A program made the translations under genes and the position numbers. A model generated the notes under the pieces. That model made no database searches and was not told the DNA's origin. It was given only the letters and a program-made list of their open reading frames with translations. A stretch of DNA of 64,000 nt from Haliclona indistincta (Eukaryota > Porifera > Demospongiae > Haplosclerida > Chalinidae): contig OZ024784.1 in assembly GCA_964017065.1 (NCBI GenBank), positions 6,491,152 to 6,555,151 of the forward strand, read 5' to 3'. Every line of letters begins with the position of its first letter. The stretch's first letter is position 1. Positions 1,315-33,337 of the stretch are shown here, piece after piece.

Positions 1315-4300
1315 ACCGAACTATCTTATCGTGTTTCATGGCGAAGAAATAGCAGTCCTGGTCAATATTGTGATTCCACTACTGTTGCTAATGGTAATCT
1401 TGGCAGTGGAGAAGGCAATCTTATATGCTTGAGTGGCTGTTCTGGCACGATTACAGCAATGTCTTATATTTGTACTGACTTCAGTATACAAGAAAATTGG
1501 TCCTTTGGTGAACGTTTTATTGCTTATTCAAATGATGTAGCACTATTTAATGTTGCGGATGAGGTGACTATTGGTTTTACTGGTTGCTGCTGGATATCAT
1601 CTGTCGGTGGCAGCTGGAGCCTTTCAACTAGACTGAGTCTGGTCAAAAGAAATGACACTGGCAGAATCAACTCAACACCTCGTGCCATTACTGCTCCTGT
1701 CATTCGCCTTCAAGAAGGTTGTAATCACACCTTGGCCCTTGCTGTCAGCGACCCTGATGGTGATGATGTTCGCTGTAGATGGGCCAGTACTAATCTTGAA
1801 TGTGGAGGCATCTGTAGTACATTTCCTGGTGCTGTCCTTGATTCAGCTTCTTGTATGATTACTTACTGGGCTAATCAAGGAGCTGGCTACAAAGCTGCTG
1901 CAATAATGCTTGAAGACTTTTCTCCTGGTCAGTCAGAGCCATTTAGTAGTGTTGGTTTGCAATTCCTGGTTCTAGTAGTTAGTTCAAACAGTCCATGCTC
2001 ACAGAAGCCAACGTTCATTCACCCAACTTTGCCCCAGGCTACATGTGTAGCTATTCCGGCCATGGCTACTTTTATGACACAGCTAACAGCAACAAGCGGT
2101 GGCACAGGTGTATCCATCACTGAAATACAAACCACCTCACCACTGGGTACATCTAAAGGAGTGCTACAGCATGTAGTAGGTACTAATACTTACTATGTCA
2201 ACATAACATGGACTCCTGAACCAAACCAATACAATCAAACACATCTATTTTGCTACACAGCCCTGAACTCTGCTGGTCTAGCTAGTGAACAAACGTGCAT
2301 TCAATTCCTTACAGCACATTTACCTCCCACACTGATCAATGGAACCAACATACCAAATCAGGAAATGGTTCATCCTTCTAACACCACATGGCATGCTAGA
2401 TTTGATACAGCTATACAGCGTCCTTCTCTAGCTGCTTTCATTATTTTTTATGACAATAACACTGGTAATGAAGTGTATCGAATTGATGCTTCGTTATCGC
2501 CAGAAATAAGCTTTCATGTGTCAAATGAAGTTTCCATACGTCCAAATTACATTTTCGCAGAAAAGAAAAAGTTTTATATACAACTTTCTAGAGGCATTGT
2601 TCAAGGAATATCAGGTTGTGGAGCTGGAAATGAACCAATAGTAGATATAGATTTTTGGGTTTTTGAAACAATAGATGTGACTCCACCAATGATACACTTC
2701 ACTGCTAACCCGTCTATCAGCAATACTAATATTACCATATCTTGGGAAAGTAATGAATCTGTAGCTTGGCAATGCATACTAATATCAGGTAATGTTGAGT
2801 CTGTGGTCAACTGTTCTGGTGCTTTCTGGAGAGGATATGATATGTCTGAAGGCACGTACTCCTTAAATGTTAGTGGCATTGACAAAGCAGGAAATAAAGC
2901 TACAGTGGTACACATGTTTATGGTAGATTTGACCCCACCTACTACTGTCATAAAGGCCAAGCCTAAGGCAATATCTAACCAGCTAAATCCAAGATTTAAT
3001 TTTGTCTGTAATGATGTAGGCTGCACTTATGAATGCCAGTTTAGCAAAATCAACAATGCTTCGCAAAAATTGTCACAATCATGTAATGGAGGTTTCTTTG
3101 ACACACCAACTCTTGAACACAACTATACGTATGTTTTTCAAGTTTCAGCAACTGATATAGTTGGTAACAAAGGTATCTTTGCAAACTACACATGGGATAC
3201 AGACTTTGAAAGTCCACACATATTTGTCATTGATAATGTAACAGTTCAGTGCACTGACACTAGTCCAATGCATACAGGCCAGCCTATGGCAGTGGATAAT
3301 CGATCAGGTATTGTTCCAACCACGTATGTTGATTTCAATCTTGGTTGCTCAATAAAACGCACTTGGAGAGCTACAGATGAAGCAGGAAACACAGCCAGCT
3401 TATTACAGTACATAGACCTGGACTTTCAACCCTCAATATCACTGGCTCCACAAGTTCTGTTAAAGTGTGACAGCACTGCAGATGCTGTAACTGTCTCTAC
3501 AATGACGGCACATGCTATTAATCCATGCAATCTACCATTTCAACTAACTCACATCGATTCCATTGATAACTACACTTGCCCTGCTCAATTCACGCGCAAT
3601 TGGACAATTGCTATATGCAGTAAAAAGGCAACTGCTTCTCAGGTAATTTCTGTATACGATGTATGTCCTGTACATGCTTGTGGAAGAAATGAAACCAAGC
3701 CACGTGGTGCATGCATTTTTGGCGAATGTTTATGTAATAAGCCATGGCATGGCAACGACTGCAGTGTTCTTATATATGAGCCAGTGCTGCAAGCAATAAA
3801 TCATACTGTCTTAAAAGAAGCCCAAGAATATATTGCTAATGTAACACTATCAATGGGTACAAAACCTTTTTCGTGGAGAGTACTTTCTGGTCCCAACGGG
3901 TTGAATATAAATGGAAATCTTGGTCAGGTAATATGGAATAGAGCACATGCTGGAAACCATACTATTGCAGTAGAAGTTGAAAATCAAATTGGTAGAGCTG
4001 AGGTAGAGTGGACATTAGAGGTCAAACCTGGATACAATGCAACTATAGATCATGCTTCTGGTAGTATATTCTCACAAGCTCAACCAGTCATCTTAATGGG
4101 ACATGTTGAATATGTAGCTGGCAATCTTGTCAAGGAATCTCTTGCTGGTGTTGTGCTTGTTGAAATTGATATCATCGCAAATGAAGCAACAAGAACATTG
4201 AAAGCATCCACTACTCAAGATGGAGAATTCTCACTAACATTTTATCCTACTGCAACAGAATATGGCAGCTACACAGCAGCTGCAAGGCACCCAAGTTCCT

Positions 4301-7300
4301 CTAAAGTTTTTTCTCAAGTTGAATGGAGCTTTCTCGGAATGAAAGCTATGCCAAGAGTCGTTAGTTTGAGAGGAGAGACAATGAACAGCTTCATGGACAC
4401 TTTTCATAATGCAACTACTATCTTGAATGATGGTCCAGAGGCTTTAAGTGGTCTTACAGCAATTGCACTTATAAATAGTGAAGACTTAAATGTGATAGCA
4501 TCATTTCAAAATGTGCCATCAAATGGTTCTATTGCTCCTGGAAATGCAATACAAATGGACATAACTGTAACTGCTTCACAACCAGTACAGCATACATTTA
4601 CTATTGAAATTCATTCTTTTCAAAATACTACAGTTGAATTAATTGTTCAGCTCTACGTTGCACAGATTCTTCCAAGTTTTTTAATTGAGCCATCATCTAT
4701 TAATACCAGAATAATTAGAGGAAGCTCACGAGTTCTTCAATTCAACATAACCAATGTTGGTAGGGCCACAGCAAATAATGTTCAAGCTATTTTACCATCC
4801 ACAAACATAATTTCTTTCATCAGCTTTGGTCAAAATGGAAGTAGCCCTCGTTTGAACTTAAAAACAGGAGAATCTGCAACACTATCAATCCTAATACAAA
4901 CACCACAAAGTCAACAACTTGGTGAAATCTCTGCTTCAATGGCCATTTCTAGTGCAGAAGCATCAAAAGCTATTCCTGTGTTTCTTATTGTATCTTCAAA
5001 CCTTCTATTAGACTTGACAGTAGTAGTTGAAGATGAATACACATACTTTGCTGAAGGAAGACCACTAGTAGATAATGCAATAGTGACAATCTTGAACTAT
5101 CAAAGGAATATAAGAATGACTAATGGAACTGATTCTAGGAATGGCAGTGTTATATTTTACAACATCATTGAGGACAGGTATGAGCTAACTGTTGAGGCAC
5201 CAAATCATCGAAGTGCTCGTCAGGTAATTATTACTTCTAGCGACAATCCAGTTGTAACAATATTCATTGAAAGACAAGCAGTGATATACAGATGGAGTGT
5301 TACACAGGTCACATATGAGGACACCTATTCTCTTGTCATTGAAGCTGACTTTGAAACAAATGTGCCAATACCAGTAGTTACAGTGACACCAATGGAGTTT
5401 GATCTTGATGAGCTAGAGCGTGGCTTCATTGACTCGATTCAGCTAAACATAACAAATCATGGTCTCATTCGAGCCGATGATGTCGAAATACAACTCCCTA
5501 CCACACATCCATTTTTAGAATTCTCTATCGCAAATGAAGATCTTGGCAATTTGAATCCCCTTACTTCGATTATTGCAACTGTTCGTATAACAAGAAGACA
5601 TGTTCAAAAACGTGCTGCACCAGCAGTTGTTCTTGTATATGCAATTCAAGTGTTACATAGCTTTGTTTGCAATGAAAGACAATTTCGTATTACTCCTATA
5701 TTTTTGAAAAAGGATCCACCACCTGCACCACCATCTTCAGGCAATAGAGTTCCTTCCTTTCCAAGATTGCGTTATTATGGTGGAGGAAATGGAGGAAATG
5801 GAGGAAATGGACCAGGTCTCCCAGAATTCAGTTCCATACCCTATTCAGCTGTCACTCCTGCTTTTTGCAATAAGTGCCTACAAGCAGTTGTCTCATGCAT
5901 ACCAACGCCAATTTTTCGTTTTTCCGGGTGTATTCCACTATTGATAGGTCAAAAAAGTCCACTTGAATCAGTTCAAAATGCTTTAAGTTGGTTAGGCTGT
6001 GATGTTGACAACAAATGGCTAGGTCCGTTAAATTGTTTTCTTGGTCTTTTTAACGAGGACTGCAAAAGAATTGCACAATCGCTTGTTGGTAGACGCAAGA
6101 GAGCACTTTCTAGCCGAGTAGATGAGTTACTTGATGGTATTTTCCCAATCCATCAGAGTATGAAACTCGGTGAAGAAGTACTTGGTGATCAAATCTGGCT
6201 TTCTGTTAGTGATCCAGAATTGCTGTCTCATATCTATGGATCTATGGATGACGGGAGTGAATCAGGTGTGTTGATATCTATCACAGAGCTCTCTTCAATA
6301 CTGGCTTTGAATCCTCCAAATGGGACTAATACTGAAATGGTTCGTGAGTTAGTAGAACGCTTGAACAACACTCTCCATGGATGGACTACAGGACAACTTG
6401 AACCAGAAGATGGTTCAAATATAGCTTCTTTTAATACTACTCGAAAATATGAGGAAGACATATTCTTGTTCAATGAGAAAGCTAAGAGCAAGGGATTTTC
6501 ATCATATCTGGATGCATACAGTGTTGCTAGAGATGACATCAATCAACTCGACAGATGGGAAGAAGAGGAGGGTGTTTGCGCTGTTGTGAGGATCCGGATT
6601 GAACAGGAACTTGCTGTTACCCGAGAAGCATTCCTTGCTAAACTAGAAATTGAAAACAAAGAAAACCTACCACTTGAGCAAATCGAGTTAGAAATTGTTA
6701 TAGTTGACTCAACCAATGGTAACGTAGCTACAAGCCTATTTTCCATCAGCAATGAAACTCTTTCAGGTTCTCTTGTGAAGGATGGGTCCAAATGGCTTCT
6801 TGGAAGTGGAATGTCTGGACAGGTCGAATGGCTAATTGCTCCTTACTCTGAGGCAGCTCCTCACTCTGATAAAGAGTATGATATTCGAGGAACCTTGCGG
6901 TATGTGCTAGATATGGAGGACATCACTATTCCTCTCCTCCCTACCTTGATCACAGTGAAACCTGATCCATCTTTAATTGTGCACTATTTCTGGGAAAAGA
7001 AGGTCATTGCTGATGATCCCTTTACTGATGAAAGGGAACCATCAGTGCCATTTACACTTGGTGTTGCTATAAGAAACAAGGGCGCTGGAGTTGCTACTGA
7101 TCTTCGAATTACGTCTGGACAGCCTGAAATAATTGAAAACGAAAAAGGACTGTTGGTCAACTTTATGATAATTGGTGCAAACATCGGTATTGGAAATATT
7201 ACACCATCTTTGACTGTTACATTTGGTGATCTTCTCCCAAACACAACTACTGTAGCAAGATGGTTCATGATCTCCAGTCTCCAGGGAGAGTTCAGGAACT

Positions 7301-8052: not shown

Positions 8053-8171
8053 CAATAACAGTACATGCATTTTTGTTTGATTGTGTAGCTGAATTTAGAA
8101 TAGTAGTAGTCTACTATAGTATGTATGTCTGTGTATGTAGTATGGAGTTTAAAGTAAAGTAAAAAAGTTTT

Positions 8172-8177
8172 AATAAA
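8172..8177 (+). terminator. Poly(A) signal of G1
   Basis: AATAAA lies 120 bases after the G1 stop codon, inside an A-rich run. The same hexamer in the same context follows G2. It sits about 10 bases from the stop of the opposite-strand VPS13-derived frame, so transcripts from the two strands probably overlap at their 3' ends. Confidence 0.6.
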
Positions 8178-8194
8178 AAAAACTAAAAAGTGTA

Positions 8195-8425
8195 GGGATG
8201 ACGCTTGCAAAAGTAAAGGAACAAGATGGGATGAAGCTTGCAAAAGTAAAGGAACAAAATGGGATGATGCTTACGAAAGTAAAGGAACAAGATGGGATGA
8301 TGCTTGCAAAAGTAAAGGAACAAAATGGGATGATGCTTACGAAAGTAAAGGAACAAGATGGGATGATGTTTGCAAAAGTGAAGGAACAACATGGAATAAT
8401 GCTTGCAAATGTAAAAAGTCCCAAG
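8195..8425. repeat. 33-base minisatellite, about 7 units
   Basis: The units read roughly gggatgatgcttgcaaaag followed by taaaggaacaaa, alternating aag/aat and gcttgc/gcttac variants. Since 33 is a multiple of three, several frames stay open on both strands. The minus frame continues from a VPS13-derived exon and yields an 11-residue repeat such as CKHHPILFLYF. The same repeat after G2 has about five units, and none follows G3. Confidence 0.92.
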
Positions 8426-12387: not shown

Positions 12388-15300
12388 ATGTTGCAGGCTT
12401 GCTCTGTAGTGCTGGTGCTAATCTGCACTACAGGAATCATGGCAAGTCACTTTCGTGGTGGTATCATCATGGTCAGAAGAAATCCAGACAATACTGTGAG
12501 TAAAGAATACTGAATATTGTCATCTAATTATGTCAACTTGCAATATAATTATACATAATGATCATGTTATCAGTTGAGACATTAAATTTTACGGTACACA
12601 TGTAGTCCATTTTAGTTCACAATTAATGTATTTGAACACGAATGCTCTTATCGTAGAAATTTGGTGCCATAATTTATTGTATAATTTCAGAATACTGGCT
12701 GTACGCTGTAAATATAAAACTTGCCATGCTCTCAAATTATACACACTTTAAGCAATTTTTCATGCTTTGGGCTTTGTCGTAATAAAAATCGGTGATTTCA
12801 CAATCAAAAGAAAATGTTTTACATGTGTGCGTATACTGCATTACATATTATTATAAGGTGGAGTCAGGTAGTCAAAACTCTAAACCCCAAAAACAGTGAT
12901 TATTAATCTTTTTGTACAGACCGAACTTTCTTATCGTGTTTCATGGCGAGGAAATAGCAGTCCTGGTCAAAATTGTGATTCCAATAAATTATCTGATTTA
13001 TTGACCTCGCCCTCGAGGCCTATGGCCCTCGGGCTCGGTCAATAAATCGATATAGCATTCGCAGGGTGTTATAATACTTACAAATGTATATCCCAGTTGA
13101 TCAAAGAATGTTCTATGTGTGTATTTTGTATATACCCTTAGTCACAGGTTAAAACCAGTTATATACCACACATGTAATAACTGGATGAGTGAAGTGAGTG
13201 CAGCACTTTGTAAATTGCAGGAGGCACATAGCTACAATCAACTGGGAGATAAACATGCGGCATGTTTATCTCTTGGGATATAAACTGGGAAATAGACATG
13301 CCTGCATAGGAAACACACTCATGAATGTGTTATCAAATTTTACTCGTGTATTCCCTATATACACACTAGGTATGCATGGAATATATTACTTGTGTTTGAG
13401 TATTCTCTTGATAGCTGCAATAACATCGTGTACTGCATAGTGTACTACATCGTGTACTGCATAGTGTACTACATCGTGTACTGCATAGTGTACTACATCG
13501 TGTACTGCATAGTGTACTACATCGTGTACTACACCATGTACTACACCGTTAACCCATGACTATAATGCAGTGCATGTTGACATGATAATTATTAATTATT
13601 GTGAATACACATTGATCCTACAAATGAAATTTCATTTTTAGTTCACATAAAGGTATTTGAACACTAATTTAAAAAATACTCCTCTTGTTGTGGAAATTTG
13701 TGGCAAATTACAGTGGTACCTCTCTATAACGGACAAGTTGGGCAAGTGCTTTTGTCTGTTATATGGAGACATCTGCTATTAGGAGTGTCCATTAACTGTA
13801 TAATGATTTCAGGATACTGGGTGTATACCGAAACATAGAATTGTCTGCTATGTTAATAACATCTTTTTTTTCAGTGAATTTTGTGTTTTTTGGCTTTGCC
13901 ATAATTCTTATTGGCAAAAATCAGTAATCAGCATTAAAAAATTTCTACAGGTGTGCACACACTAGTGTGCATTACTGCATTACATAATGAGGTAGTGAAT
14001 CAGATGTTATGACCTAAACAACTCTGAACTCCTAGAATAATGATGAACAATTTGTGTAAACATTAGAATATATTAGACTCTAGACTGGACTGAACCAGGT
14101 GAGCTGGACTCCAGACTGCAGTACAGGGTTTTGCAGGTTGCTTGACCAAACAATTTGCTGCTAGCGCATGCGCATAGCGTGTTTTTGTATACAAATTGTA
14201 CAGAAAACGTACTGTGCGCATGCGCTAGCAGTAAATTTTTGGTCAAGCAACCTGCAAAACCCTTTAAGCTAGCTAGAGCTGATTATCATCAATATCATGC
14301 AGGTTTAGTTATCACAATGCAGTGTTATTTGTATTGTGGATATCCGAGAAAACCAAGAGAAAGTTTGGAGTCCATACAACAACCGTGAATAGATGACAGA
14401 TATTGTTTTTCACTTGCAACAGTAAACTGTAAAACACCTGAATAATACGGTTCAAAGTCCATACACATGTACATAGTCTAGGTTTTGTATTTGTGTACTC
14501 CTGACAGCTAGTACACACTGCAGATTCCGGGCACTTGAAATTGTCCATGCCTGGTATATATAATTGATCTAATCTTTTGTACAGACCGAACTATCTTATC
14601 GTGTTTCATGGCGAAGAGATAGCAGTTCTGGTCAAAATTGTGATTCTACTACTGTTGCTAGTGGTATTCCTAGTGGTGGACAAGGCAATGTTGTATGCTT
14701 GAGTGGCTGTTCTGGCACAATTACAACAGTTATGTCTTATATTTGTACTGACTTCAGTATACAAGAAAATTGGTCCTTTGGTGAACGTTTTATTACTTAT
14801 TCAAATGATGTAGCACTATTTAATGTTGCAGATGAGGTGACTATTGGTTTTACTGGTTGCTGCTGGATATCATCTGTCGGTGGCAGTGGCAGCTGGAGCC
14901 TTTCAACTAGACTGAGTCTGGTCAAACGAAATGACACTGGCAGAATCAACTCAACACCTCGTGCCATTACTGCTCCTGTCATTCGCCTTCAAGAAGGTTG
15001 TAATCACACCTTGGCCCTTGCTGTCAGCGACCCTGATGGTGATGATGTTCGCTGTAGATGGGCCAGTACTAATCTTGAATGTGGAGGCATCTGTAATACT
15101 TTTCCTGGTGCTGTCCTTGATTCAGCTTCTTGTATGATTACTTACTGGGCTAATCAAGGAACTGGCTACAAAGCTGCTGCAATAATGCTTGAAGATTTTT
15201 TTCCTGGTCAGTCAGAGCCATTTAGTAGTGTTGGTTTGCAATTCCTGGTTCTAGTAGTTAGTTCAAACAGTCCATGCTCACAAAAGCCAACGTTCATTCA

Positions 15301-18300
15301 CCCAACTTTGCCCCAGGCTACATGTGTAGCTATTCCGGCCATGGCTACTTTTATGACACAGCTAACAGCAACAAGCGGTGGCACAGGTGTATCTATCACT
15401 GAAATACAAACCACCTCACCACTGGGTACATCTAAAGGAGTGCTACAGCATGTAGTAGGAACCAATACTTATTATGTCAACATAACATGGACTCCTGAAC
15501 CAAACCAATACAATCAAACACATCTATTTTGCTACACAGCCCTGAACTCTGCAGGTCTGGCTAGTGAACAAACGTGCATTCAATTCCTTACAGCACATTT
15601 ACCTCCCACACTGATTAATGGAACCAACGCACCAAATCAGGAAATGGTTCATCCTTCTAACACCACATGGCATGCTAGATTTGATACAGCTATACAGCGT
15701 CCTTCTCTAGCTGCTTTCATTATCTTTTATGACAATAACACTGGTAATGAAGTGTATCGAATTGATGCTTCGTTATCGCCAGAAATAAGCTTTCATGTGT
15801 CAAATGAAGTTTCTATACGTCCAAATTACATTTTCGCAGAAAAGAACAAATTTTATATAAGACTTTCTAGAGGCATTGTTCAAGGAATATCAGGTTGTGG
15901 ACCTGGAAACGAACCAATAGAAGATAGACATTTTTGGGTTTTTGAAACAATGGATGTGACTCCTCCAATGATACACTTCACTGCTAACCCGTCTATCAGC
16001 AATGCTAATATTACCATATCTTGGGAAAGTAATGAATCTGTAGCTTGGCAATGCATACTGATATCAGGTAATGTCGAGTCCGTGGTCAACTGTTCTGGTG
16101 CTTTCTGGAGAGGATATGATATGTCTGAAGGCACGTACTCCTTAAATGTTAGTGGCATTGACGAAGCAGGAAATAAAGCTACAGTGGTACACACGTTTAT
16201 GGTAGATTTGACCCCACCTATTACTGTCATAAAGGCCAAGCCTAAGGCAATATCTAACCAGCTAAATCCAAGGTTTACTTTTGTCTGTAATGATGTAGGC
16301 TGCACTTATGAATGCCAGTTTAGCAAAATCAACAATGCTTCGCAAAAATTGTCACAATCATGTAATGGAGGTTTCTTTGTCACACCAACTCTTGAACACA
16401 ACTATACGTATGTTTTTCAAGTTTCAGCAACTGATATAGTTGGTAACAAAGGTATCTTTGCAAACTACACATGGGATACAGACTTTGAAAGTCCACACAT
16501 ATTTGTCATTGATAATGTAACAGTTCAGTGCACTGACACTAGTCCAATGCATACAGGCCAGCCTATGGCAGTGGACAATCGATCAGGTATTGTTCCAACA
16601 ACATATGTTGATTTTAATCTTGGTTGCTCAATAAAACGCACTTGGAGAGCTACAGATGAAGCTGGAAACACGGCCAGTTTATTACAGTATATAGGCCTAG
16701 ATTTTCAACCCTCAATATCACTGGCTCCACAAGTTCTGTTAAAGTGTGACAGCACTGCAGATGCTGTAACTGTCTCTACAATGACGGCACATGCTATTAA
16801 TCCATGCAATCTACCATTTCAACTAACTCACATCGATTCCATTGATAACTACACTTGCCCTGCTCAATTCACGCGCAATTGGACAATTGCTATTTGCAGT
16901 AAAAAGGCAACTGCTTCTCAGGTAATTTCTGTATACGATGTATGTCCTGTACATGCTTGTGGAAGAAATGAAACCAAGCCACGTGGTGCATGCATTATTG
17001 GCGAATGTTTATGTAATAAGCCATGGCATGGCAATGACTGCAGTGTTCCTATATATGAGCCAGTGCTGCAGGCAATAAATCATACTGTCTTAAAAGAAGT
17101 CCAAGAATATATTGCTAATGTAACATTATTAATGGGTACAAAACCTTTTTCATGGACAGTACTTTCTGGTCCCAATGGCTTGAATATAAATGGAAATCTT
17201 GGTCAGGTAATATGGAATAGAGCACATGCTGGAAACCATACTATTGCAGTAGAAGTTGAAAATCAAATTGGTAGAGCTGAGGTAGAGTGGACATTAGAGG
17301 TCAAACCTGGATACAATGCAACTCTAGATCATGCTTCTGGTAGTATATTCTCACAAGCTCAACCAGTCATCTTAATGGGACATGTTGAATATGTAGCTGG
17401 CAATCTTGTCAAGGAATTTCTTGCTGGTGTTGTGCTTGTTGAAATTGATATCATCGCAAATGGAGCCACAAGAACATTGAAAGCATCCACTACTCAAGAT
17501 GGAGAATTCTCACTAACATTTTATCCTACTGCAACAGAATATGGCAGCTACACAGCAGCTGCAAGGCACCCAAGTTCCTCCAAAGTTTTTTCTCAAGTTG
17601 AATGGAGCTTTCTCGGAATGAAAGCTATGCCAAGAGTTGTTAGTTTGAGAGGAGAGACAATGAACAGCTTCATGGACACTTTTCATAATGCAACTACTAT
17701 CTTGAATGATGGCCCAGAGGCTTTAAGTGGTCTTACAGCAATCGCACTTATAAATAGTGAAGACTTAAATGTGATAGCATCATTTCAAAATGTGCCATCA
17801 AATGGTTCTATTGCTCCTGGAAATGCGGTACAAATGGACATAACTGTAACTGCTTCACAACCATTACAGCATACATTTACTATTGAAGTACATTCTTTTC
17901 AAAATACTACACTTCAATTAATTGTTCAGCTCTACGTTGCACAGATTCTTCCAAGTTTTTTAATTGAGCCATCATCTATTAATACCAGAATAATTAGAGG
18001 AAGCTCACGAGTTATTCAATTCAGCATAACCAATGTTGGTAGGGCCACAGCTAGTAATGTTAAAGCTATTTTACCATCCACAAACATAATTTCTTTCATC
18101 AGCTTTGGTCAAAATGGAAGTAACCCTCGTTTAAACTTAAAAACTGGACAATCTGCATCACTATCAATCCTAGTACAAACACCACAAAGTCAACAACTTG
18201 GTGAAATCTCTGCTTCAATGGCCATTTCTAGTGCAGAAGCATCAAAAGCTATTCCTATGTTTCTTATTGTATCTTCAAACCTTCTATTAGACTTGACAGT

Positions 18301-21300
18301 AGTAGTTGAAGATGAATACACATACTTTGCTGAAGGAAGACCACTAGTAGACAATGCAATAGTGACAATCTTGAACTATCAACGGAATATAAGAATGACT
18401 AATGGAACTGATTCTAGGAATGGCAGTGTTATATTTTACAACATCATTGAGGACAGGTATGAGCTAACTGTTGAGGCACCAAATCATCGAAGTGTTCGTC
18501 AGGTGATTATTACTACTAGCGACAATCCAGTTGTAACAATATTCATTGAAAGGCAAGCAGTAATATACAGATGGAGTGTTATACCGGTCACATATGAGGA
18601 CACTTATTCTCTTGTCATTGAAGCTGACTTCGAAACAAATGTGCCAATACCAGTAGTTACAGTGACACCAATGGAGTTTGATCTTGATGAGCTAGAGCGT
18701 GGCTTCATTGACTCGATCCAGCTAAACATAACAAATCATGGTCTCATTCGAGCCGATGATGTCGAAATACAACTTCCTACCACACATCCATTTTTAGAAT
18801 TCTCTATTGCAAATGAAGGTCTTGGTAATTTGAATCCCCTTACTTCAATAATTGTAACTGTTCGTATAACAAGAAGACATGTTCAAAAACGTGCTGCACC
18901 AGCACTTGTTCTTGTATATGCAATTCAAGTGTTACATAGCTTTGTTTGCAATGTAAGACAATTTCGTATTACTCCAATTGTTTTGAAAAAGGATCCACCA
19001 CCTCCACCACCTACACCACTTGCACCATCTGCACCACTTGCACCATCTGCACCATCTGCACCATCTGCACCACCTGCATCACCTGCATCACCTGCACCAC
19101 TTGCACTACCATTTTCAGGCAATAGAGTTCCTTCTTTTCCAAGATTGCGTTATTATGGTGGAGGCAATGGAGTAGGTCTCCCAGAATTCATTTCCATACC
19201 CTATTCGGCTGTCACTTCTGCTTTTTGCAATAAGTGCCTACAAGCAGTTGTCTCATGCATACCAACGCCACTTTTTCCTTTTTCTGGGTGTATTCCGCTA
19301 TTGATAGCTCAAGATTTTCCATCTCCTAACAAACCTCCATTTGAATCAGTTAAAAGTGCATTAAAATGGATTGGTTGTCTTGTTAATAAACCATGGTTAC
19401 ATTTGAAAAATTGCTTTCTTGGTCTTTTTAATGAGGACTGCAAAAGAATTGCACAATCGCTTGTTGGTAGACGCAAGAGAGCGCTTTCTAGCCGAGTAGA
19501 TGAGTTACTGGATGGTATATTCCCAATCCGTCAGAGTATGAAACTCGGTGAAGAAATACTTGGAGATGAAGTCTGGCTTTCTATTGGTGATCCAGAATGG
19601 CTGTCTCATATCTATGAATCTATGGACGACGGGAGTGAATCAGGTGTGTTGATATCTATCACAGAGCTCTCTTCAATACTGGCTTTGAATCCTCCAAATG
19701 GGACTAATACTGAAATGGTTCGTAAATTAGTAGAACGCTTGAACAACACTCTCCATGGATGGACTACAGGACAGCTGGAACCAGAAAATGGTTCAAATAT
19801 AGCTTCTTTTAACACTACTCGAAAATATGAGGAAGACATATTCTTGTTCAATGAGAAAGCTAAGAGCAAGGGATTTTCATCATATCTGGATGCATACAGT
19901 GTTGCTAGAAATGACATCAATCAACTCGACAGATGGGAAGAAGAGGAGGGTGTTTGTGCTGTTGTGAGGATCCGGATTGAACAGGAACTTGCTGTTACCC
20001 GAGAAGCATTCCTTGCTAAACTAGAAATTGAAAACAAAGAAAACCTACCACTTGAGCGAATCGAGTTAGAAATTGTCATAGTTGACTCAACCAATGGTAA
20101 CATAGCTACAAGCCTATTTTCAATCAGCAATGAAACTCTTTCAGGTTCTCTTGTGAAGGATGGGTCCAAATGGCTTCTTGGAAGTGGAATGTCTGGACAG
20201 GTCGAATGGCTAATTGCTCCTTACTCTGAGGCAGCTCCTCATTCTGATAAAGAGTATGATATTCGAGGAACCTTGCGGTATGTGCTGGATATGGAGAACA
20301 TCACTATTCCTCTCCTCCCTACCTTGATCACAGTGAAACCTGATCCATCTTTAATTGTGCACTATTTCTGGGAAAAGAAGGTCATTGCTGATGATCCCTT
20401 TACTGATGAAAGGGAACCATCAGTGCCATTTACACTTGGTGTTGCTATAAGAAACAAGGGTGCTGGAGTTGCTACTGATCTTCGAATTACGTCTGGACAG
20501 CCTGAAATAATTGAAAACGAAAAAGGTCTGTTGGTCAACTTTATGATAATTGGTGCAAACATCGGTATTGGAAATATTACACCGTCTTTGACTGTTACAT
20601 TTGGTGATCTTCTCCCAAACACAACTACTGTAGCAAGATGGTTCATGATCTCCAGTCTCCAGGGAGAGTTCAGGAACTATTCTGCTGTCTTTGAAAACAA
20701 GAATCCTCTTGGTGATCCCAAACTTTCGATCCTTGATGACCTACAGATTCACGAACTTTTCCGAAACGTCGAAATGTATGACAACAGTGAAGATGATGGA
20801 ATTCCTGACTTTCTTGTCATTGCTCGTAACCGACCAAGTGAATTGTACAGCAGCAAGACACTACAGCAATATGCTGTCAACCCTGGGGAGGTAATTTCGG
20901 TTCACATTGCATCTACTAACTCACTTTCTCTTGAGGTAAGGACCAAGGCAAACTGTACTGGCTGGATTTACTACAGATACGAAGACTCACAGAATATGCT
21001 GCAAAACACAGCTCTCTTCTTGAATACTACAAAGCAAGAAGGAAATACCACGTCTCAAATTCCTTCAACAAACGCATGGATAACTAGTGAAAAAGATTCA
21101 AGCAAATCTACTGAAACATTCTTTCTTCATGTAGTTGATAACATTCAGTCAATGGAAGAGGTGGTCTTCACTATGACGCTTTGTACTGTCAACTGCACTG
21201 GTGTGGAAGTACCTTTCATTGATCCAACTGGCAGATTCGAAACATCAACAACCACTACCATTCCAGCACCTTCTTCCAGCACAACTACTACAACAAATGA

Positions 21301-21430
21301 TGCATCATTTCAGGCGACAGTATCCATGGTGCCTACCAGTACTCCACCTTCTGCTGGTGCTGCTCCTCAAATAACTGGATTTATTGTTCTCTTTACTATA
21401 TTTGCTGTTGTGACAATTTTGATAACTTAG
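12388..21430 (+). CDS. Giant GPI-anchor-like multidomain surface protein G2 (complete, 2 exons)
   Basis: Exon 1 (12388-12495) encodes 36 residues, MLQACSVVLVLICTTGIMA then SHFRGG, a signal peptide with cleavage likely just before SHFRGG. Donor gtgagt and acceptor tacag join it in phase 0 to exon 2 (14585-21430), giving 2,317 residues. Approximate order: Cys-rich N-terminal module (20-280); Ig/HYR-like modules with TPPMIHF (about 495) and LTPPITV (about 580); EGF-like loop (830-860); putative-Ig module (865-955); NEW3/CARDB-like modules (about 1170 and 1395); carboxypeptidase-regulatory-like module (1270-1335); Pro/Ala/Ser linker (1508-1548); Cys patch (1583-1655); furin-like RRKR (about 1665); Ser/Thr stalk (2255-2290); and a C-terminal GPI-type hydrophobic tail. 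The very large second exon is unusual in this intron-rich neighbourhood. Role unknown; extracellular location is well supported. Confidence 0.92.
12920..12983 (+). pseudogene. Orphan copy of the start of exon 2 inside G2 intron 1
   Basis: After a good acceptor (tttttgtacag) the sequence repeats the first ~64 bases of exon 2 (TELSYRVSWRGNSSPGQNCDS), then jumps into a hairpin sequence. Splicing exon 1 here would give a short secreted peptide ending at a stop near 13047. Its sequence differs slightly from the starts of G1, G2 and G3 (RGN rather than RRN/RRD), so it may derive from a further gene copy. Confidence 0.8.
12996..13052. repeat. GC-rich hairpin
   Basis: gatttattgacc at 12999 pairs perfectly with ggtcaataaatc at about 13038. 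The intervening tcgccctcgagg and ccctcgggctcg pair imperfectly. It marks the breakpoint where the orphan exon ends, so it may be the insertion that caused it. A similar gacccgagcccgag string occurs at 32-46. Confidence 0.6.
13424..13548. repeat. 24-base tandem repeat, about 5 copies
   Basis: The unit catcgtgtactgcatagtgtacta recurs every 24 bases in intron 1 of G2, with degenerate ends (acaccatgta, acaccgt). The G1 intron has only a single degenerate equivalent (about 409-428). Confidence 0.9.
14124..14264. mobile_element. 141-base palindromic MITE with TA target duplication
   Basis: Ends cagggttttgcaggttgctt and the reverse complement of aagggttttgcaggttgctt extend into a nearly complete palindrome (agcgcatgcgca / tgcgcatgcgct). 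TA flanks both sides. The G1 intron carries the uninterrupted sequence gactgcagtaagctagctag, a clean empty site. The TA duplication suggests Tc1/mariner-type mobilisation. Confidence 0.9.
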
Positions 21431-24414: not shown

Positions 24415-27400
24415 ATGTTGCAGGCTTGCTCTGTAGTGCTGGTGCTAATCTGCACTACAGGAATCATGGCAAGCCACTTTCGTGGTGGTATCATCACGGT
24501 CAGAAGAAATCCAGACAATACTGTGAGTAAAGAGTACTGAATAATTCTTTTATCTGCAGCTCGTGACAGAGCAACGCTAGCAGCGTGAAACTCGCTCTGA
24601 TGCATCATTGAGTGTGTCTCAATGTATAATGCAGCTTGAAACGTTGCACAATATTCTGCACCAAGGAATAATGTAGGAACGATCGACATCGTACGGATAC
24701 GCATTTTTTCACGCCAAAAATCTCTCCTGACTAACCGTGCAGCAAAGGTTACCAGCTGAAATTCGACTCTTATAAACCATTTCTAGGTGCTGACGAAGAG
24801 TTTTCTGCATTTACTTTTTCTGATTTTAAGAAAAACACTTTTACATTCTAAATCATGGCTGATTTTGCAGTGACGTCCATGTTTGTCGATGCATAGAACA
24901 GCTACGTTCAGCGTGGGTCAACAAAACTCTTCGTCTGCACCTAGAAATGGTTTATAAGAGTCGAATTTCAGCTGGTAACCTTTGCTGCATGGTTAGTCAG
25001 GAGAGATTTTTGGCTAGAAAAATGCGTATCCGTACGATGTCGATTTTTCCTACATTATTCCTTGGTGTAGAATATTGTGCAACGTTTCAAGCTGCATTAT
25101 ACATTGAGACACACTCATTGATGCATCAGAGCGAGTTTCAATCTGCTAGCGCTGTTCTGTCACGAGCTGCAGATAAAAGAAAGTCGCTCATTAATATTCA
25201 TAAAAACGGGTATACCGCCACCTTAATTAAGTATAATTATCATGTCAACATGCAATATATATGTTACGACCCGATTCACAACCTGACCCGTTTCGAAGCC
25301 GGCCGCCGGTTTCGAAGCCGGTTAACCCGATTTACAACCACATAACTCAGTTGACCCGGTTTAAAACCAATGCTTCAGGGTGCCCACCTGCATGCTAGAT
25401 CGACAGAACCTACGTAGGAGTGCTGTCGCGGTTATAGCTCACTGCAGTGCAGCGCAGCAAGACTGGAAAGTGTCCGCGGAGGCGATTTAGAGCATCATGT
25501 GCTACTACAGTCATCGACAGGAGCGTCGTTGTAAGTGGTTTAGCAGCGCAGCACAGCAAGCCTACCTGCTAAATTGACAGGAATGCCGTTACGAGTGGTT
25601 CAGCAACGCAGCGCAGCAAGAAATGTTGTGTGCATGCAACAGTTGTTTTAACAATCAAACTGCACTAAAATTCATAGGAACATGTCACAGCTTCTTCTTC
25701 AAACGTGACTCCTGTACATGGAAGCAAATTTAAAGAACAGTATGATTGCGATGCAATGTATATGGATCCTCAGAGTACACGTTATGTTTAGTAGTCGAAG
25801 TCTATTACACGCGCGCACTTAGCATTATGCACGCTTTGAATCTGGCGCGCAGCTAGCAAACCCGCTTCGAAACCGGTCAACCGGCTTCGAAGCGGGTCAA
25901 AGGTTGTGAATCGGGTCGTAACATATACAGGCCCGGCGGAAGCAAATTTTCATTGGACCGGCAGCTCATTAATATTCATATTTATTGCGTACAACTCCGC
26001 CCCTTTGCAATTTGTTCGATGTTTTGGTCGCGTGTGACGAGAGTCTCTGTCTACGAAACAAGTTTATACTGACTCGTAGAGCGACAATGACCACATTTTA
26101 GCTCGTGGCAACGTAAGGAAAGTGATTTTGTATAATCGTGGCCCAAAATTATTGGTCCGGCACGTGCCGGGTCTGCCCTGTTGGGTGCGCCGGGCCTGAT
26201 ATACATGTACATGATGATTTTATCAGTTGAGACATTTAGTTCACGCTTTTGGGCTTTCAGTGATTTCATTATCAAAAGAAAAGTTTTTACAGGTGTGCTT
26301 ATACTGACCTGCATTACATAACAAGGGGGAGTCAGGTAGTTTAACCCCTAAAAATAGTGATGAACAATTGTGTAAACATAGATTATTACAATAATTATGG
26401 TTACATTATGTATGGCTGCTGATAGCTATTATACACTGCAAATTCTATTATTCATTGTCTATGCTAGCTGTGCTAGATAATTAATTAATCTTTTGTACAG
26501 ACCGAACTATCTTATCGTGTCTCATGGCGAAGAGATAGCAATCCTGGTCAATATTGTGATTCTACTACTGTTGCTAATGGTAATCTTGGCAGTGGAGAAG
26601 GCAATCTTGTATGCTTGAGTGGTTGTTCTGGCACGATTACACCAATGTCTTATATTTGTACTGACTTCAGTATACAAGAAAATTGGTCCTTTGGTGAACG
26701 TTTTATTACTTATTCAAATGATGTAGCACTATTTAATGTTGCAGATGAGGTGACTATTGGTTTTACTGGTTGCTGCTGGATATCATCTGTCGGTGGCAGC
26801 TGGAGCCTTTCAACTAGACTGAGTCTGGTCAAAAGAAATGACACTGGCAGAATCAACTCAACACCTCGTTCCATTACTGCTCCTGTCATTCGGCTTCAGG
26901 AGGGTTGTAATCACACCTTGGCCCTTGCTGTCAGCGACCCTGATGGTGATGCTGTTCGCTGTAGATGGGCCAGTACTAATCTTGAATGTGGAGGCATTTG
27001 TAGTACATTCCCTGGTGCTGTCCTTGATTCAGCTTCTTGTATGATTACTTACTGGGCTAATCAAGGAACTGGATACAAAGCTGCTGCAATAATGCTTGAA
27101 GATTTTTCTCCTGGTCAGTCAGAGCCATTTAGTAGTGTTGGTTTGCAATTCCTGGTTCTAGTAGTTAGTTCAAACAGTCCATGCTCACAAAAGCCAACGT
27201 TCATTCACCCAACTTTGCCCCAGGCTACATGTGTAGCTATTCCGGCCATGGCTACTTTTATGACACAGCTAACAGCAACAAGCGGTGGCACAGGTGTATC
27301 CATCTCTGAAATACAAACCACCTCACCACTGGGTACATCTAAAGGAGTGCTACAGCATGTAGTAGGTACTAATACTTACTATGTCAACATAACATGGACT

Positions 27401-30400
27401 CCTGAACCAAACCAATACAATCAAACACATCTATTTTGCTACACAGCCCTGAACTCTGCAGGTCTGGCTAGTGAACAAACATGCATTCAATTCCTTACAG
27501 CACATTTACCTCCCACACTGATTAATGGAACCAACATACCAAATCAGGAAATGGCTCATCCTTCTAACACCACATGGCATGCTAGATTTGATACAGCTAT
27601 ACAGCGTCCTTCTCTAGCTGCTTTCATTATCTTTTATGACAATAACACTGGTAATGAAGTGTATCGAATTGATGCTTCGTTATCGCCAGAAATAAGCTTT
27701 CATGTGTCAAATGAAATTTCTATACATCCAAATTACATTTTCGCAGAAAAGAAGAAATTTTATATACAACTTTCTAGAGGCATTGTTCAAGGAATAGCAG
27801 GTTGTGGACCTGGAAACGAACCAATAGAAGATAGAGATTTTTGGGTTTTTGAAACAATGGATGTGACTCCACCAATGATACACTTCACTGCTAACCCGTC
27901 TATCAGCAATGCTAACATTACCATATCTTGGGAAAGTAATGAATCTGTAGCTTGGCAATGCTTACTGATATCAGGTAATGTTGAGTCTGTGGTCAACTGT
28001 TCTGGTGCTTTCTGGAGAGGATATGATATGTCTGAAGGCACATACTCCTTGAACGTTAGTGGCACTGACGAAGCAGGAAATAGAGCTACAGTGGTGCACA
28101 CGTTTATGGTAGATTTGACCCCACCTATTACTGTTATAAAGGCCAAGCCTAAGCCAATATCTAACCAGCTAAATCCAAGATTTAATTTTGTCTGTAATGA
28201 TGTAGCCTGCACTTATGAATGCCAGCTTAGCAAAATCAACAATGCTTTGCAAAAATTGTCACAATCATGTAATGGAGGTTTCTTTGTCACACCAACTCTT
28301 GAACACAACTATACGTATGTTTTTCAAGTTACAGCAACTGATATAGTTGGTAACAAAGGTATCTTTGCAAACTACACATGGGATACAGACTTTGAAAGTC
28401 CACACATATTTGTCATTGATAATGTAACAGTTCAGTGCACTGACACTAGTCCAATGCATACAGGCCAGCCTATGGCAGTAGATAATCGATCAGGTATTGT
28501 TCCAACTACTCATGTTGATTTTAATCTTGGTTGCTCAATAAAACGCACTTGGAGAGCTACAGATGAAGCTGGAAACACAGCCAGCTTAATACAATATATA
28601 GGCCTGGATTTTCAACCCTCAATATCACTGGCTCCACAGGTTCTGTTAAAGTGTGACAGCACTGCAGATGCTGTAACTGTCTCTACAATGACGGCACACG
28701 CTATTAATCCCTGCAATCTACCATTTCAACTAACCCACATTGATTCTATTGATAACTACACTTGCCCTGCTCAATTCACGCGCAATTGGACAATTTCTAT
28801 TTGCAGTAAAAAGGCAACTGCTTTTCAGGTAATTTCTGTATACGATGTATGTCCTGTACATGCTTGTGGAAGAAATGAAACCAAGCCACGTGGTGCATGC
28901 ATCCTTGGCGAATGTTTATGTAATAAGCCATGGCATGGCAATGACTGCAGTGTTCTTATATATGAGCCAGTGCTGCAGGCAATAAATCATACTGTCTTAA
29001 AAGAAGCCCAAGAATATATTGCTAATGTAACACTATTAATGGGTACAAAACCTTTTTCATGGACAGTACTTTCTGGTCCCGATGGCTTGAATATAAATGG
29101 AAATCTTGGTCAGGTAATATGGAATAGAGCACGTGCTGGAAACCATACTATTGCAGTAGAAGTTGAAAATCAAATTGGTAGAGCTGAGGTAGAGTGGATA
29201 TTAGAGGTCAAACCTGGATACAATGCAACTCTAGATCATGCTTCTGGTAGTATATTCTCACAAGCTCAACCAGTCATCTTAATGGGACATGTTGAATATG
29301 TAGCTGGCAATCTTGTCAAGGAATCTCTTGCTGGTGTTGTGCTTGTTGAAATTGATGTCATCGCAAATGGAGCCACAAGAACATTGAAAGCATCCACTAC
29401 TCATGATGGAGATTTCTCACTAACATTTTATCCTACTGCAACAGAATATGGCAGCTACACAGCAGCTGCAAGGCACCCAAGTTCCTACAAAGTTCTTTCT
29501 CAAGTTGAATGGAGCTTTCTTGGAATGAAAGCTATGCCAAGAGTTGTTAGTTTGAGAGGAGAGACAATGAACAGCTTCATGGACACTTTTCATAATGCAA
29601 CTACTATCTTGAATGATGGCCCAGAGGCTTTAAGTGGTCTTACAGCAATCGCACTTGTAAATAGTGAAGACTTAAATGTGATAGCATCATTTCAAAATGT
29701 GCCATCAAATGGTTCTATTGCTCCTGGAAACGCAATACAAATGGACATAACTGTAACTGCTTCACAACCATTACAGCATACATTTATTATTGAAATTCAT
29801 TCTTTTCAAAATACTACAGTTGAATTAATTGTTCAGCTCTACGTTGCACAGATTCTTCCAAGTTTTTTAATCGAGCCATCATCTATTAATACCAGAATAA
29901 TTAGAGGAAGCTCACGAGTACTTCAATTCAACATAACCAATGTTGGTAGGGCCACAGCAAATAATGTTAAAGCTATTTTACCATCCACAAACATAATTTC
30001 TTTCATCAGCTTTGGTCAAAATGGAAATAACCCTCGTTTAAACTTAAAAACAGGAGAATCTGCAACACTATCAATCCTAATACAAACACCACAAAGTCAA
30101 CAACTTGGTGAAATCTCTGCTTCAATGGCCATTTCTAGTGCAGAAGCATCTAAAGCTATTCCTGTGTTTCTTATTGTATCTTCAAACCTTCTATTAGACT
30201 TGACAGTAGTAGTTGAAGATGAATACACATACTTTGCTGAAGGAAGACCACTAGTAGATAATGCAATAGTGACAATCTTGAACTATCAAAGGAATATAAG
30301 AATGACTAATGGAACTAATTCTAGGAATGGCAGTGTTATATTTTACAACATTATTGAGGACAGGTATGAGCTAACTGTTGAGGCACCAAATCATCGAAGT

Positions 30401-33337
30401 GTTCGTCAGGTGATTATTACTACTAGCGACAATCCAGTTGTAACAATATTCATTGAAAGACAAGCAGTAATATATAGATGGAGTGTTATACCGGTCACAT
30501 ATGAGGACACCTATTCTCTTGTCATTGAAGCTGACTTCGAAACAAATGTGCCAATACCAGTAGTTACAGTAACACCAATGGAGATTGATCTCGATGAGCT
30601 AGAGCGTGGCTTCATTGACTCGATTCAGCTAAACATAACAAATCATGGTCTCATTCGAGCCGATGATGTTGAAATACAACTCCCTACCACACATCCATTT
30701 TTAGAATTCTCTATTGCAAATGAAGATCTTGGCAATTTGAATCCCCTTACTTCGATAATTACAACTGTTCTTATAACAAGAAGACATGTTCAAAAACGTG
30801 CTGCACCACCAGTTGTTCTTGTATATGCAATTCAAGTGTTACATAGCTTTGTTTGCAATGTAAGACAATTTCGTATTACTCCAATTGTTTTGAAAAAGGA
30901 TCCACCACCTCCACCACCTACACCACTTGCACCATCTGCACCATCTGCACCACCTGCACCACCTGACCTACCTGACCTACCTGCACCACCTGCATCACCT
31001 GCACCATCTGCACTACCATTTTCAGGCAATAGAGTTCCTTCTTTTCCAAGATTGCGTTATTATGGTGGAGGCAATGGAGTAGGTCTCCCAGAATTCATTT
31101 CCATACCCTATTCGGCTGTCACTTCTGCTTTTTGCAATAAATGCCTACAAGCAGTTGTCTCATGCATACCAACGCCACTTTTTCCTTTTTCCGGGTGTAT
31201 TCCGCTATTGATAGCTCAAGATTTTCCATCTCCTAACAAACCTCCATTTGAATCAGTTAAAAGTGCATTAAAATGGATTGGTTGTCTAGTTAATAAACCA
31301 TCGTTACATTTGAAAAATTGCTTTCTTGGTCTTTTTAATGAGGACTGCAAAAGAATTGCACAATCGCTTGTCGGTAGACGCAAGAGAGCACTTTCTAGCC
31401 GAGTAGATGAGTTACTTGATGGTATATTCCCAATCCATCAGAGTATGAAACTCGGTGAAGAAATACTTGGAGATGAAGTCTGGCTTTCTATTGGTGACCC
31501 AGAATGGCTGTCTCATATCTATGAATTTATGGACGACGGGAGTGAATCAGGTGTGTTGATATCTATCACAGAGCTCTCTTCGATATTGGCTTTGAATCCT
31601 CCAAATGGGACTAATACTGAAATGGTTCGTAAATTAGTAGAACGCTTGAACAACACTCTCCATGGATGGACTACAGGACAGCTAGAACCAGAAGATGGTT
31701 CAAATATAGCTTCTTTTAACACTACTCGAAAATATGAGGAAGACATATTCTTGTTCAATGAGAAAGCTAAGAGCAAGGGATTTTCATCATATCTGGATGC
31801 ATACAGTGTTGCTAGAAATGACATCAATCAACTCGACAGATGGGAAGAAGAGGAGGGTGTTTGCGCTGTTGTGAGGATCCGGATTGAACAGGAACTTGCT
31901 GTTACCAGAGAAGCATTCCTTGCTAAACTAGAAATTGAAAACAAAGAAAACCTACCACTTGAGCGAATCGAGTTAGAAATTGTCATAGTTGACTCAACCA
32001 ATGGTAACATAGCTACAAGCCTATTTTCAATCAGCAATGAAACTCTTTCAGGTTCTCTTGTGAAGGATGGGTCCAAATGGCTTCTTGGAAGTGGAATGTC
32101 TGGACAGGTCGAATGGCTAATTGCTCCTTACTCTGAGGCAGCTCCTCATTCTGATAAAGAGTATGATATTCGAGGAACCTTGCGGTATGTGCTAGATATG
32201 GAGAACATCACAATTCCTCTCCTCCCTACCTTGATCACAGTGAAACCTGATCCATCTTTAATTGTGCACTATTTCTGGGAAAAGAAGGTCATTGCTGATG
32301 ATCCCTTTACTGATGAAAGGGAACCATCAGTGCCATTTACACTTGGTGTTGCTATAAGAAACAAGGGCGCTGGAGTTGCTACTGATCTTCGAATTACGTC
32401 TGGACAGCCTGAAATAATTGAAAACGAAAAAGGTCTGTTGGTCAACTTTATGATAATTGGTGCAAACATCGGTATTGGAAATATTACACCGTCTTTGACT
32501 GTTACATTTGGTGATCTCCTCCCAAACACAACTACTGTAGCAAGATGGTTCATGATCTCCAGTCTCCAGGGAGAGTTCAAGAACTATTCTGCTGTCTTTG
32601 AAAACAAGAACCCTCTTGGTGATCCCAAACTTTCGATCCTTGATGACCTAAAGATTCACGAACTTTTCCGAAACGTCGAAATGTATGACAGCAGTGAGGA
32701 TGATGGAATTCCTGACTTTCTTGTCATTGCTCGTAACCGACCAAGTGAACTATACAGCAGTAAGACACTACAGCAATATGCTGTCAACCCTGGGGAGGTA
32801 ATTTCGGTTCACATTGCGTCTACTAACTCTCTTTCTCTTGAGGTAAGGACCAAGGCAAACTGTACTGGCTGGATTTACTACAGATATGAAGACTCACAGA
32901 ATATGCTGCAAAACACAGCTCTTTTCTTGAATACTACAAAGCAAGAAGGAAATACCACGTCTCATATTCCTTCAACAAATGCATGGATAACGAGCGAAAA
33001 AGATTCAAGCAAATCTACAGAAACATTCTTTCTTCATGTAGTTGATAACATTCAGTCAATGGATGAGGTGGTCTTCACTATGACGCTTTGTACTGTCAAC
33101 TGCACTGGAGTGGAAGTACCTTTCATTGATCCGACTGGCAGATTCGAAACATCAACAACCACTACAATTCCAGCACCTTCTTCCAGCACAACTACTACAA
33201 CAAATGATGCATCATTTCAGGCGACAGTATCCATGGTGCCTACCAGTACTCCACCTCCCGTTGGTGCTGCTCCTCAAATAACTGGATTTATTGTTCTCTT
33301 TACTATATTTGCTGTTGTGACAATTTTGATAACTTAG
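24415..33337 (+). CDS. Giant GPI-anchor-like multidomain surface protein G3 (complete, 2 exons)
   Basis: Exon 1 (24415-24522) encodes the same signal peptide and SHFRGGIITVRRNPDNT. It joins in phase 0 to exon 2 (26501-33337), giving 2,314 residues. Architecture follows G2: Cys-rich N-terminus, Ig/HYR-like modules, EGF-like loop, NEW3/CARDB-like modules, Pro/Ala linker (30900-31015, with PDLPDLP variants), Cys patch, RRKR site, Ser/Thr stalk and GPI-type tail. It is mosaic. At both ends it matches G1 (GNLGSGEGNL; STPPPVGAAP; SMDEVVF), while the linker and Cys patch match G2. The 3' flank diverges from G1 and G2 after about 33430, with no minisatellite or VPS13 fragment, so this is the array edge. 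Its intron carries several inverted-repeat elements. Function unknown. Confidence 0.92.
24547..25179. mobile_element. 633-base foldback element in G3 intron 1
   Basis: The ends CTTTTATCTGCAGCTCGTGA and their complement begin arms of about 265 bases each that pair almost throughout, around a loop of roughly 95 bases. Open frames within it are by-products of the arms and do not look like a transposase. It is absent from the G1 and G2 introns. Confidence 0.88.
25262..25923. mobile_element. TGTTACG-type inverted-repeat element, copy 1
   Basis: It starts TGTTACGACCCGATTCACAA and ends with the near reverse complement TTGTGAATCGGGTCGTAACA, with TATA on both flanks. Subterminal GC-rich repeats (tttcgaagccgg and related) occur at both ends. 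No transposase frame is visible, so it is probably non-autonomous. The element at 56521-57390 shares the terminus and flank. Confidence 0.85.
25925..26205. mobile_element. Possible short inverted-repeat element abutting the TGTTACG element
   Basis: tatacaggcccggcg at 25925 and cgccgggcctgatata at about 26191 form imperfect inverted ends around about 280 bases. Internal attggaccggc and attggtccggc echo each other. The boundaries are less secure than for its neighbour. Confidence 0.5.

What the first reader, a model, noticed from the sequence alone, without database searches (positions are those of the whole stretch)
1315..33337. Three tandem copies of a ~2,300-residue GPI-type surface protein that I cannot assign to a known family
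The sequence shows three near-identical genes, each with a tiny signal-peptide exon and a single ~6.8-kb exon, a GPI-type C-terminus, an EGF-like loop, Ig/CARDB-like modules and a furin-type site. Recent tandem amplification of a long, heavily glycosylated surface protein is the pattern seen in adhesion and self-recognition loci. That role is my inference and has no direct support here.
Basis: partly seen in the sequence, partly recalled or inferred. Interest (0 to 1): 0.8.

Follow-up and report, generated by a model that had tools for sequence, protein, structure and literature searches.

The report
Giant animal-bacterial chimeric surface protein triplet
Three tandem copies of a giant cell-surface protein, probably from a sponge, belong to an unnamed family also found in shrimps, and the C-terminal half of the protein is related to giant bacterial proteins, which hints at an ancient gene exchange between bacteria and animals.

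Summary
Three intact tandem genes (92.9-96.6% DNA identity in the long aligned blocks) each have a signal-peptide exon, one ~6.8-kb exon and a GPI-like tail; copy 1's signal exon lies about 1 kb upstream of the window. A genome search found these three, one broken relic and two short intron pieces. The protein is not an orphan: named relatives exist in caridean shrimps (Macrobrachium, Palaemon, Halocaridina) and in the sponge Dysidea avara, and the shrimp models share its start and order of parts. The unexpected part: residues ~900-2190 are colinear with giant bacterial proteins (about 25-40% identity), mostly of Verrucomicrobiota, and no Pfam or NCBIfam match was seen over the ~400-residue core. 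The N-terminal module was not found in 26 bacterial genomes that carry the other half. Animal rows are one clade in two trees, so one ancient transfer is plausible; direction depends on the root. Models suggest an Ig/FN3-like rod. Copies evolve under purifying selection (dN/dS 0.28-0.29), which does not favour diversifying self-recognition. Best guess: a furin-processed, GPI-anchored adhesion or matrix rod. Function is inferred.

The parts
1315..8052 (+). Copy 1, main coding exon with stop codon (2245 aa from the acceptor). Its signal exon lies upstream of the window at about -1048..-941
12388..12495 (+). Copy 2, signal-peptide exon; donor ACT|GTGAGT, phase 0
   Evidence: shrimp gene models P0160 and P0162 carry a similar SHFRGA start
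14585..21430 (+). Copy 2, main coding exon with stop codon (2281 aa)
24415..24522 (+). Copy 3, signal-peptide exon
26501..33337 (+). Copy 3, main coding exon with stop codon (2278 aa)
26501..27220 (+). Copy 3, N-terminal module (KRNDTG..NS..DPDGD), shared with shrimps, not found in 26 block-bearing bacterial genomes
28865..28948 (+). Copy 3, EGF-like loop (others 3679-3762 and 16958-17041)
29267..30697 (+). Copy 3, core of block A (residues 927-1403), colinear with bacterial proteins (others 4081-5511 and 17360-18790)
30893..31036 (+). Copy 3, Pro-rich low-complexity linker, shorter in copy 1 (others 5707-5751 and 18986-19129)
31376..31390 (+). Copy 3, furin-type site RRKR|A (others 6091-6105 and 19469-19483)
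31424..31858 (+). Copy 3, helical stretch before block B (others 6139-6573 and 19517-19951); helices of the model span about residues 1633-1780
31847..33058 (+). Copy 3, block B (residues 1787-2190), the most conserved bacterial-animal module; no Pfam or NCBIfam match seen here
33278..33337 (+). Copy 3, hydrophobic GPI-like C-terminal tail and stop codon (others 7993-8052 and 21371-21430)

Best explanation
Each gene encodes an extracellular rod of 2,281-2,317 residues. Shown by sequence: a signal-peptide exon; an N-terminal module shared with shrimps; a stretch with Big_13 and EGF-like matches, predicted to be all beta; a ~1,300-residue part homologous to giant bacterial proteins (block A, linker, helical stretch, block B); a furin-type site in the linker; a Ser/Thr stretch; and a hydrophobic tail of the GPI type. 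Inferred: the protein is secreted, N-glycosylated, cut by a furin-like protease into two pieces that stay together, and held on the outer cell surface by GPI. It would then act as an adhesion or matrix-binding rod, with the conserved helical stretch and block B next to the membrane as a fixed working or assembly unit. The bacterial-like half most likely entered the animal lineage once, before the sponge and shrimp genes separated, and was joined to the N-terminal part. In some relatives the same rod seems to end in other parts (7TM in the Dysidea avara model; EGF, SRCR or FN3 in others). The three window copies are a recent local amplification under purifying selection.
For: Gene layout. Same start in shrimps: P0160 and P0162 begin with a signal peptide and SHFRGAVIMMRP or SHFRGAIIMMKP, then the main part. 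P0158 and P0159, ranked next to the shrimp rows, are ORF calls that begin at the Met aligned with the window's exon start and end in a GPI-like tail; the exon border there is inferred. Colinear bacterial homology. Animal clade: support 100, 100/100. Beta rod. Helical stretch and an Ig-like domain. Purifying selection. Furin-type motif upstream of the anchor in 75 of 115 animal rows in which the anchor pattern was found (148 examined), against 3 of 73 bacterial linkers. Other C-terminal parts.
Against: No expression, localisation, binding or cleavage data. GPI attachment is judged from tail shape only; by a crude rule 10 of 148 animal rows are GPI-like (two of them the window's own, and at least P0132 looks wrongly classed), 69 leave the exon at a junction and may have other anchors, 67 are other. 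Matches to Ig/FN3 rods are general folds. The tree does not fix direction: rooting on three single-block bacterial proteins makes animals nested, but with weak support next to P0104 (91/70), and several animal rows have a letter make-up unlike the rest. A structural, immune or feeding-surface role is not excluded.
Confidence: 0.55

Rival explanations
1. A self/non-self recognition locus: the copies are a haplotype of a polymorphic family whose variable ectodomains set fusion or rejection.
For: Tandem near-identical long surface proteins; upstream lies another tandem array of short Cys-rich and TM-type ORFs, with ORFs holding an ITIM-like motif.
Against: dN/dS 0.28-0.29 between copies, 1 of 27 windows above 1; against copy 1 the least alike stretch is around the Pro-rich and Cys-rich linker; listed animal relatives keep 40-57% identity.
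Confidence: 0.12
2. A microbe-binding or phagocytic receptor: an animal surface protein using a bacterial-type half to hold or sort bacteria.
For: Homology of half of the protein to bacterial giant proteins; recurring contig lengths that suggest local copies in other species; relatives with SRCR or EGF additions.
Against: No binding data; conserved block B is predicted nearest the membrane rather than at the tip; purifying selection between copies.
Confidence: 0.2
3. The bacterial-animal similarity comes from an animal-to-bacteria transfer, or from an ancient shared ancestor, not from bacteria to animals.
For: The tree alone cannot fix direction; animals sit on one side of a long branch (1.12 and 1.06); only 7 of 145 genomes sampled from one bacterial phylum match, one of them the seed genome and one weak.
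Against: Bacterial rows come from Verrucomicrobiota, Planctomycetota, Cyanobacteriota, and single rows of Pseudomonadota and Bacteroidota, some of them metagenome bins that may be misassigned, and carry the blocks in varied architectures.
Confidence: 0.3
4. The triplet is an assembly artefact (haplotype copies or repeats laid in a row).
For: High identity.
Against: No N in the window, one 19.2-Mb contig, three mutually distinct copies with dS 0.066-0.077.
Confidence: 0.04

Closest known systems
Uncharacterized proteins of caridean shrimps (Macrobrachium rosenbergii P0160, Palaemon carinicauda P0162, Halocaridina rubra P0096/P0157/P0120)
   Different: 47% identity over the two blocks between P0003 and P0096; the annotated ends of P0160 and P0162 show no clear GPI-like tail; P0120 is partial; no function known
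Uncharacterized protein of the sponge Dysidea avara (P0140)
   Same: 63% identity over block B; EGF loop, block A, helical stretch, block B
   Different: Begins near the EGF loop and continues into Calx-beta, Ig, GPS and 7TM parts instead of a GPI tail; may be a real fusion or a merged gene model
Giant two-block bacterial proteins, mostly Verrucomicrobiota, also Planctomycetota and Cyanobacteriota (such as P0106, P0109, L001-L080)
   Same: Blocks A and B in the same order, about 25-40% identity, within long multidomain proteins
   Different: N-terminal module not found in 26 genomes; RX[KR]R in 3 of 73 linkers; other flanking domains, such as CARDB and He_PIG in P0107 or FG-GAP in P0111
Sponge aggregation factor core proteins (definition recalled; only passing mentions seen)
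   Same: Long surface or matrix glycoproteins of sponges
   Different: No Calx-beta match in the window proteins; Calx-beta matches in this genome lie elsewhere, many on contig C4
Dictyostelium Sib proteins, N-terminal domain PF24907
   Same: A weak local resemblance of the N-terminal module
   Different: 13.1 bits against a cut-off of 28.1

Membership tests
Two-block bacterial-animal giant protein family (described here) | Block A followed by block B in one protein | tested here: met
Two-block bacterial-animal giant protein family (described here) | N-terminal SHFRG module confined to animal members | tested here: inconclusive
   0 of 26 bacterial genomes (alignment query); other bacteria not searched; the control used a single shrimp sequence in the own genome
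GPI-anchored surface protein | Signal peptide at N-terminus | tested here: met
   by sequence; similar start in shrimp models; no predictor was run
GPI-anchored surface protein | C-terminal hydrophobic tail with nothing after it | tested here: met
   no GPI predictor was available
GPI-anchored surface protein | GPI actually attached | not testable with these tools
   needs PI-PLC release
Sponge aggregation factor | Calx-beta repeats (recalled definition) | tested here: not met
   no Calx-beta among Pfam matches of the three proteins
Sponge aggregation factor | Wreath domain (recalled) | not tested
   no model looked for; paper PMC5400394 not held
Allorecognition gene family | High polymorphism between individuals | not testable with these tools
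   one assembly only
Allorecognition gene family | Diversifying selection in the ectodomain | tested here: not met
   between the three copies only, dN/dS 0.28-0.29
Adhesion GPCR | GPS and 7TM part | tested here: not met
   not among Pfam matches of the window proteins; present in P0140
CARDB (PF07705) | Score over the curated cut-off | tested here: not met
   0 matches in own genome; shrimp P0162 10.8 bits against 22.7
SIBA-E N-terminal (PF24907) | Score over the curated cut-off | tested here: not met
   13.1 bits against 28.1
Big_13 (PF19077) | Score over the curated cut-off | tested here: met
   31.4, 34.9 and 36.5 bits against 27

The most novel reading that the evidence does not exclude
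An early animal, before the sponge and arthropod lines separated, took up a ~1,300-residue block of a giant bacterial surface protein and joined it to an animal secretion and N-terminal module. The chimera has been kept under constraint ever since (over half a billion years, from recalled divergence times) in sponges and caridean shrimps, was lost or is overlooked elsewhere, was repeatedly duplicated in place, and was re-anchored in different ways (GPI, single TM, 7TM). It would be an ancient animal surface system built on a bacterial core.
Probability: 0.4. Interest if true: 0.78.

Novelty: new variant of a known kind. Interest (0 to 1): 0.55.

Why it matters
Long surface rods are a known kind, but about half of this one is shared colinearly with bacterial giant proteins, and no curated domain model was found for its core. 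If the single-transfer reading is right, it is an unusually large structural (not enzymatic, as far as seen) piece of bacterial protein kept in animals for very long, and it gives sponge and shrimp biologists a defined, testable surface family.

Tried and rejected
Self-recognition by diversifying selection: looked for between the copies, not seen. Aggregation factor: no Calx-beta in the window proteins. SibA-like N-terminus: under the cut-off. CARDB: under the cut-off. Solved-structure sequence searches gave only weak hits at E 0.03-0.34 or none. Foldseek and VIA-align gave general Ig/FN3 or adaptin-ear-like matches; the helical stretch was barely tested by these, so no claim of a new fold is made. 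Literature: the searches listed no paper that I could recognise as being on this family; they cover an open-licence library and eight word sets only, so this does not show that it is not in print.

Limits. The organism is not told; 'sponge' is my inference from the nearest named sequence (Dysidea avara), the tree and the compact genome. In the second and third protein searches 120 of 526 and 120 of 531 hits were listed, so groups further down were not seen. P0103 lies outside the sponge and shrimp groups in an open fork in one tree and on the sponge side in the other. For Pfam and NCBIfam only the best stretch of each family is shown, so 'no match over block B' means that no listed best stretch falls there.

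Correction of my notes: I noted three look-alike TM ORFs downstream; only 50429-51436 and 57587-58459 are similar (27%, E 4e-19); the third is not by blast.

Full report
Observation. The long aligned blocks between copies are 92.9-96.6% identical in DNA and reach into flanking stretches. A script found a signal-peptide exon with a good donor at 12388-12495 and 24415-24522. Fetching 40 kb upstream showed the matching exon of copy 1 about 1 kb before the window. Main exons begin in phase 0 after CAG. The EGF loop, Pro-rich linker, Cys-rich stretch, RRKR site, Ser/Thr stretch and hydrophobic end are in all three. The frames hold 45, 45 and 43 N-glycosylation sequons and 46 Cys each.

Copies in the genome. 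The whole-genome search with copy 3 (counts are lower bounds) found the three copies, a relic on contig C3 (62-65% identity, residues 2-457, with a stop and a frame change, and a signal exon of its own) and two short pieces inside the first introns of copies 1 and 2. Between copies dS is 0.066-0.077 and dN 0.019-0.022, dN/dS 0.28-0.29; 1 of 27 windows of 250 codons has dN above dS. Site patterns are 88, 88 and 132, the last with a peak of 41 sites that set copy 1 apart at nucleotides 4500-5000 of the coding alignment. This reads as a recent amplification under purifying selection.

Relatives in animals. The first protein search gave 116 hits, with only the 7989 candidates sharing most words scored: the window's own P0004, 99 rows at 40-57% identity that I take as animal (most without names, some partial), and 16 rows that I take as bacterial. 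Searching with block B gave 526 hits, 120 listed, among them Dysidea avara P0140 and Halocaridina rubra P0120. P0160 and P0162 start with a signal peptide and SHFRGAVIMMRP or SHFRGAIIMMKP, then the main part, which supports the window's exon join. P0158 and P0159, ranked with the shrimps (P0158 also by tree), begin at the Met aligned with the window's exon start and end in a GPI-like tail. Several contig lengths recur for two or three proteins (727241, 1271747, 419098, 252055, 163113), which suggests local copies elsewhere; this is inferred from equal lengths only.

Bacterial half. Bacterial proteins in the first search match residues ~905-1440 and ~1640-2190 in order, at about 25-31% and 29-40% identity, and a joint alignment shows colinearity. 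A scan of prokaryote genomes with a block B alignment of seven sequences found 332 pattern matches, 290 confirmed, 80 kept, by their titles mostly Verrucomicrobiota, also Planctomycetota, Cyanobacteriota and a few others. On these 80 loci 73 ORFs carry both blocks (blast view). In 26 genomes behind 28 of these loci copy 3 matches in 26 of 26, the N-terminal module in 0 of 26. The control for the module is of another query type: a single shrimp sequence finds the three window copies and the relic in the own genome. In a sample of one bacterial phylum 7 of 145 genomes match, one the seed genome and one weak, so the family is patchy in bacteria. No listed Pfam or NCBIfam best stretch falls on block B in the window proteins, in shrimp proteins or in three bacterial proteins.

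Trees. A quick tree of 73 rows (11 animal and 62 bacterial, thinned from 138 and 77; 861 columns of both blocks) puts all animal rows on one side of a branch with support 100 and length 1.12. A careful tree of block B with 51 rows (10 animal, 41 bacterial, thinned) gives the animal clade 100/100, a sponge-side group 96/90 and a shrimp-side group 95/95; rooted on three single-block bacterial proteins, it places animals inside bacteria with weak support next to P0104 (91/70). Several animal rows have an unusual letter make-up, and P0103 moves between the trees. This fits one event before the sponge and shrimp genes separated. Direction is not proven by the tree; the breadth of bacterial groups favours bacteria to animals.

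Ends and processing. By a crude rule, of 148 animal rows 10 have GPI-like ends, 2 a TM plus tail, 69 leave the exon at a conserved junction and 67 are other; the rule misplaces some rows. Some relatives carry SRCR, EGF or FN3 parts (precomputed Pfam, ends), and P0140 has Calx-beta, Ig, GPS and 7TM. A furin-type motif lies before the anchor of the helical stretch in 75 of 115 rows in which the anchor pattern was found (some anchors were misplaced), and anywhere in the linker in 3 of 73 bacterial ORFs.

Literature. From PMC4784904, PMC13342648 and PMC5450542 I saw passages only; in the first two the word starts Verrucomicrobi- and adhesi- do not occur in the main text. All other papers were seen as search listings with the start of the abstract. 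PMC5400394 was not held.

Verdict. The family is not an orphan and not shown to be a recognition locus. The most notable result is the colinear sharing of about 1,300 residues with bacterial giant proteins, without a curated domain model found for the core, fused to a part found here only in animals.

Noticed in passing
upstream of window, about -34 kb to -9.8 kb (L081-L084): Tandem array (period about 3.14 kb, up to 98% identical) of ORF pieces with a Cys-rich part and a TM segment; separate ORF pieces in the same array hold SEYSMITL, an ITIM-like motif (recalled). That the pieces are exons of one gene is inferred.
   Followed up: partly
50429-51436 and 57587-58459: Two related short TM-protein ORFs (27% identity, E 4e-19); a third ORF at 47952-48812 looks alike in layout but is not similar by blast.
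   Followed up: partly
59793-61813: 173-bp satellite, 11.7 copies.
   Followed up: no
8195-8415 and 21573-21727: 33-bp minisatellite just after copies 1 and 2, not reported after copy 3.
   Followed up: no
12911-13117 and about -399 to -319: Short decayed matches to the start of the main exon inside the first introns of copies 2 and 1.
   Followed up: partly
G000:C3:7282103-7283460 (L091, L092, L095): Broken, diverged relic of the gene's N-terminal part with its own signal exon.
   Followed up: partly
38640-39692 and 41499-41825: EamA/SLC35F-type transporter ORF, and an ORF matching the planar cell polarity effector Fritz.
   Followed up: no
P0140 (Dysidea avara): The module followed by Calx-beta, Ig, GPS and 7TM parts; either an unusual adhesion GPCR or a merged gene model.
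   Followed up: partly
G000:C10:1405709: An open frame of 13,878 residues with a weak Calx-beta match.
   Followed up: no
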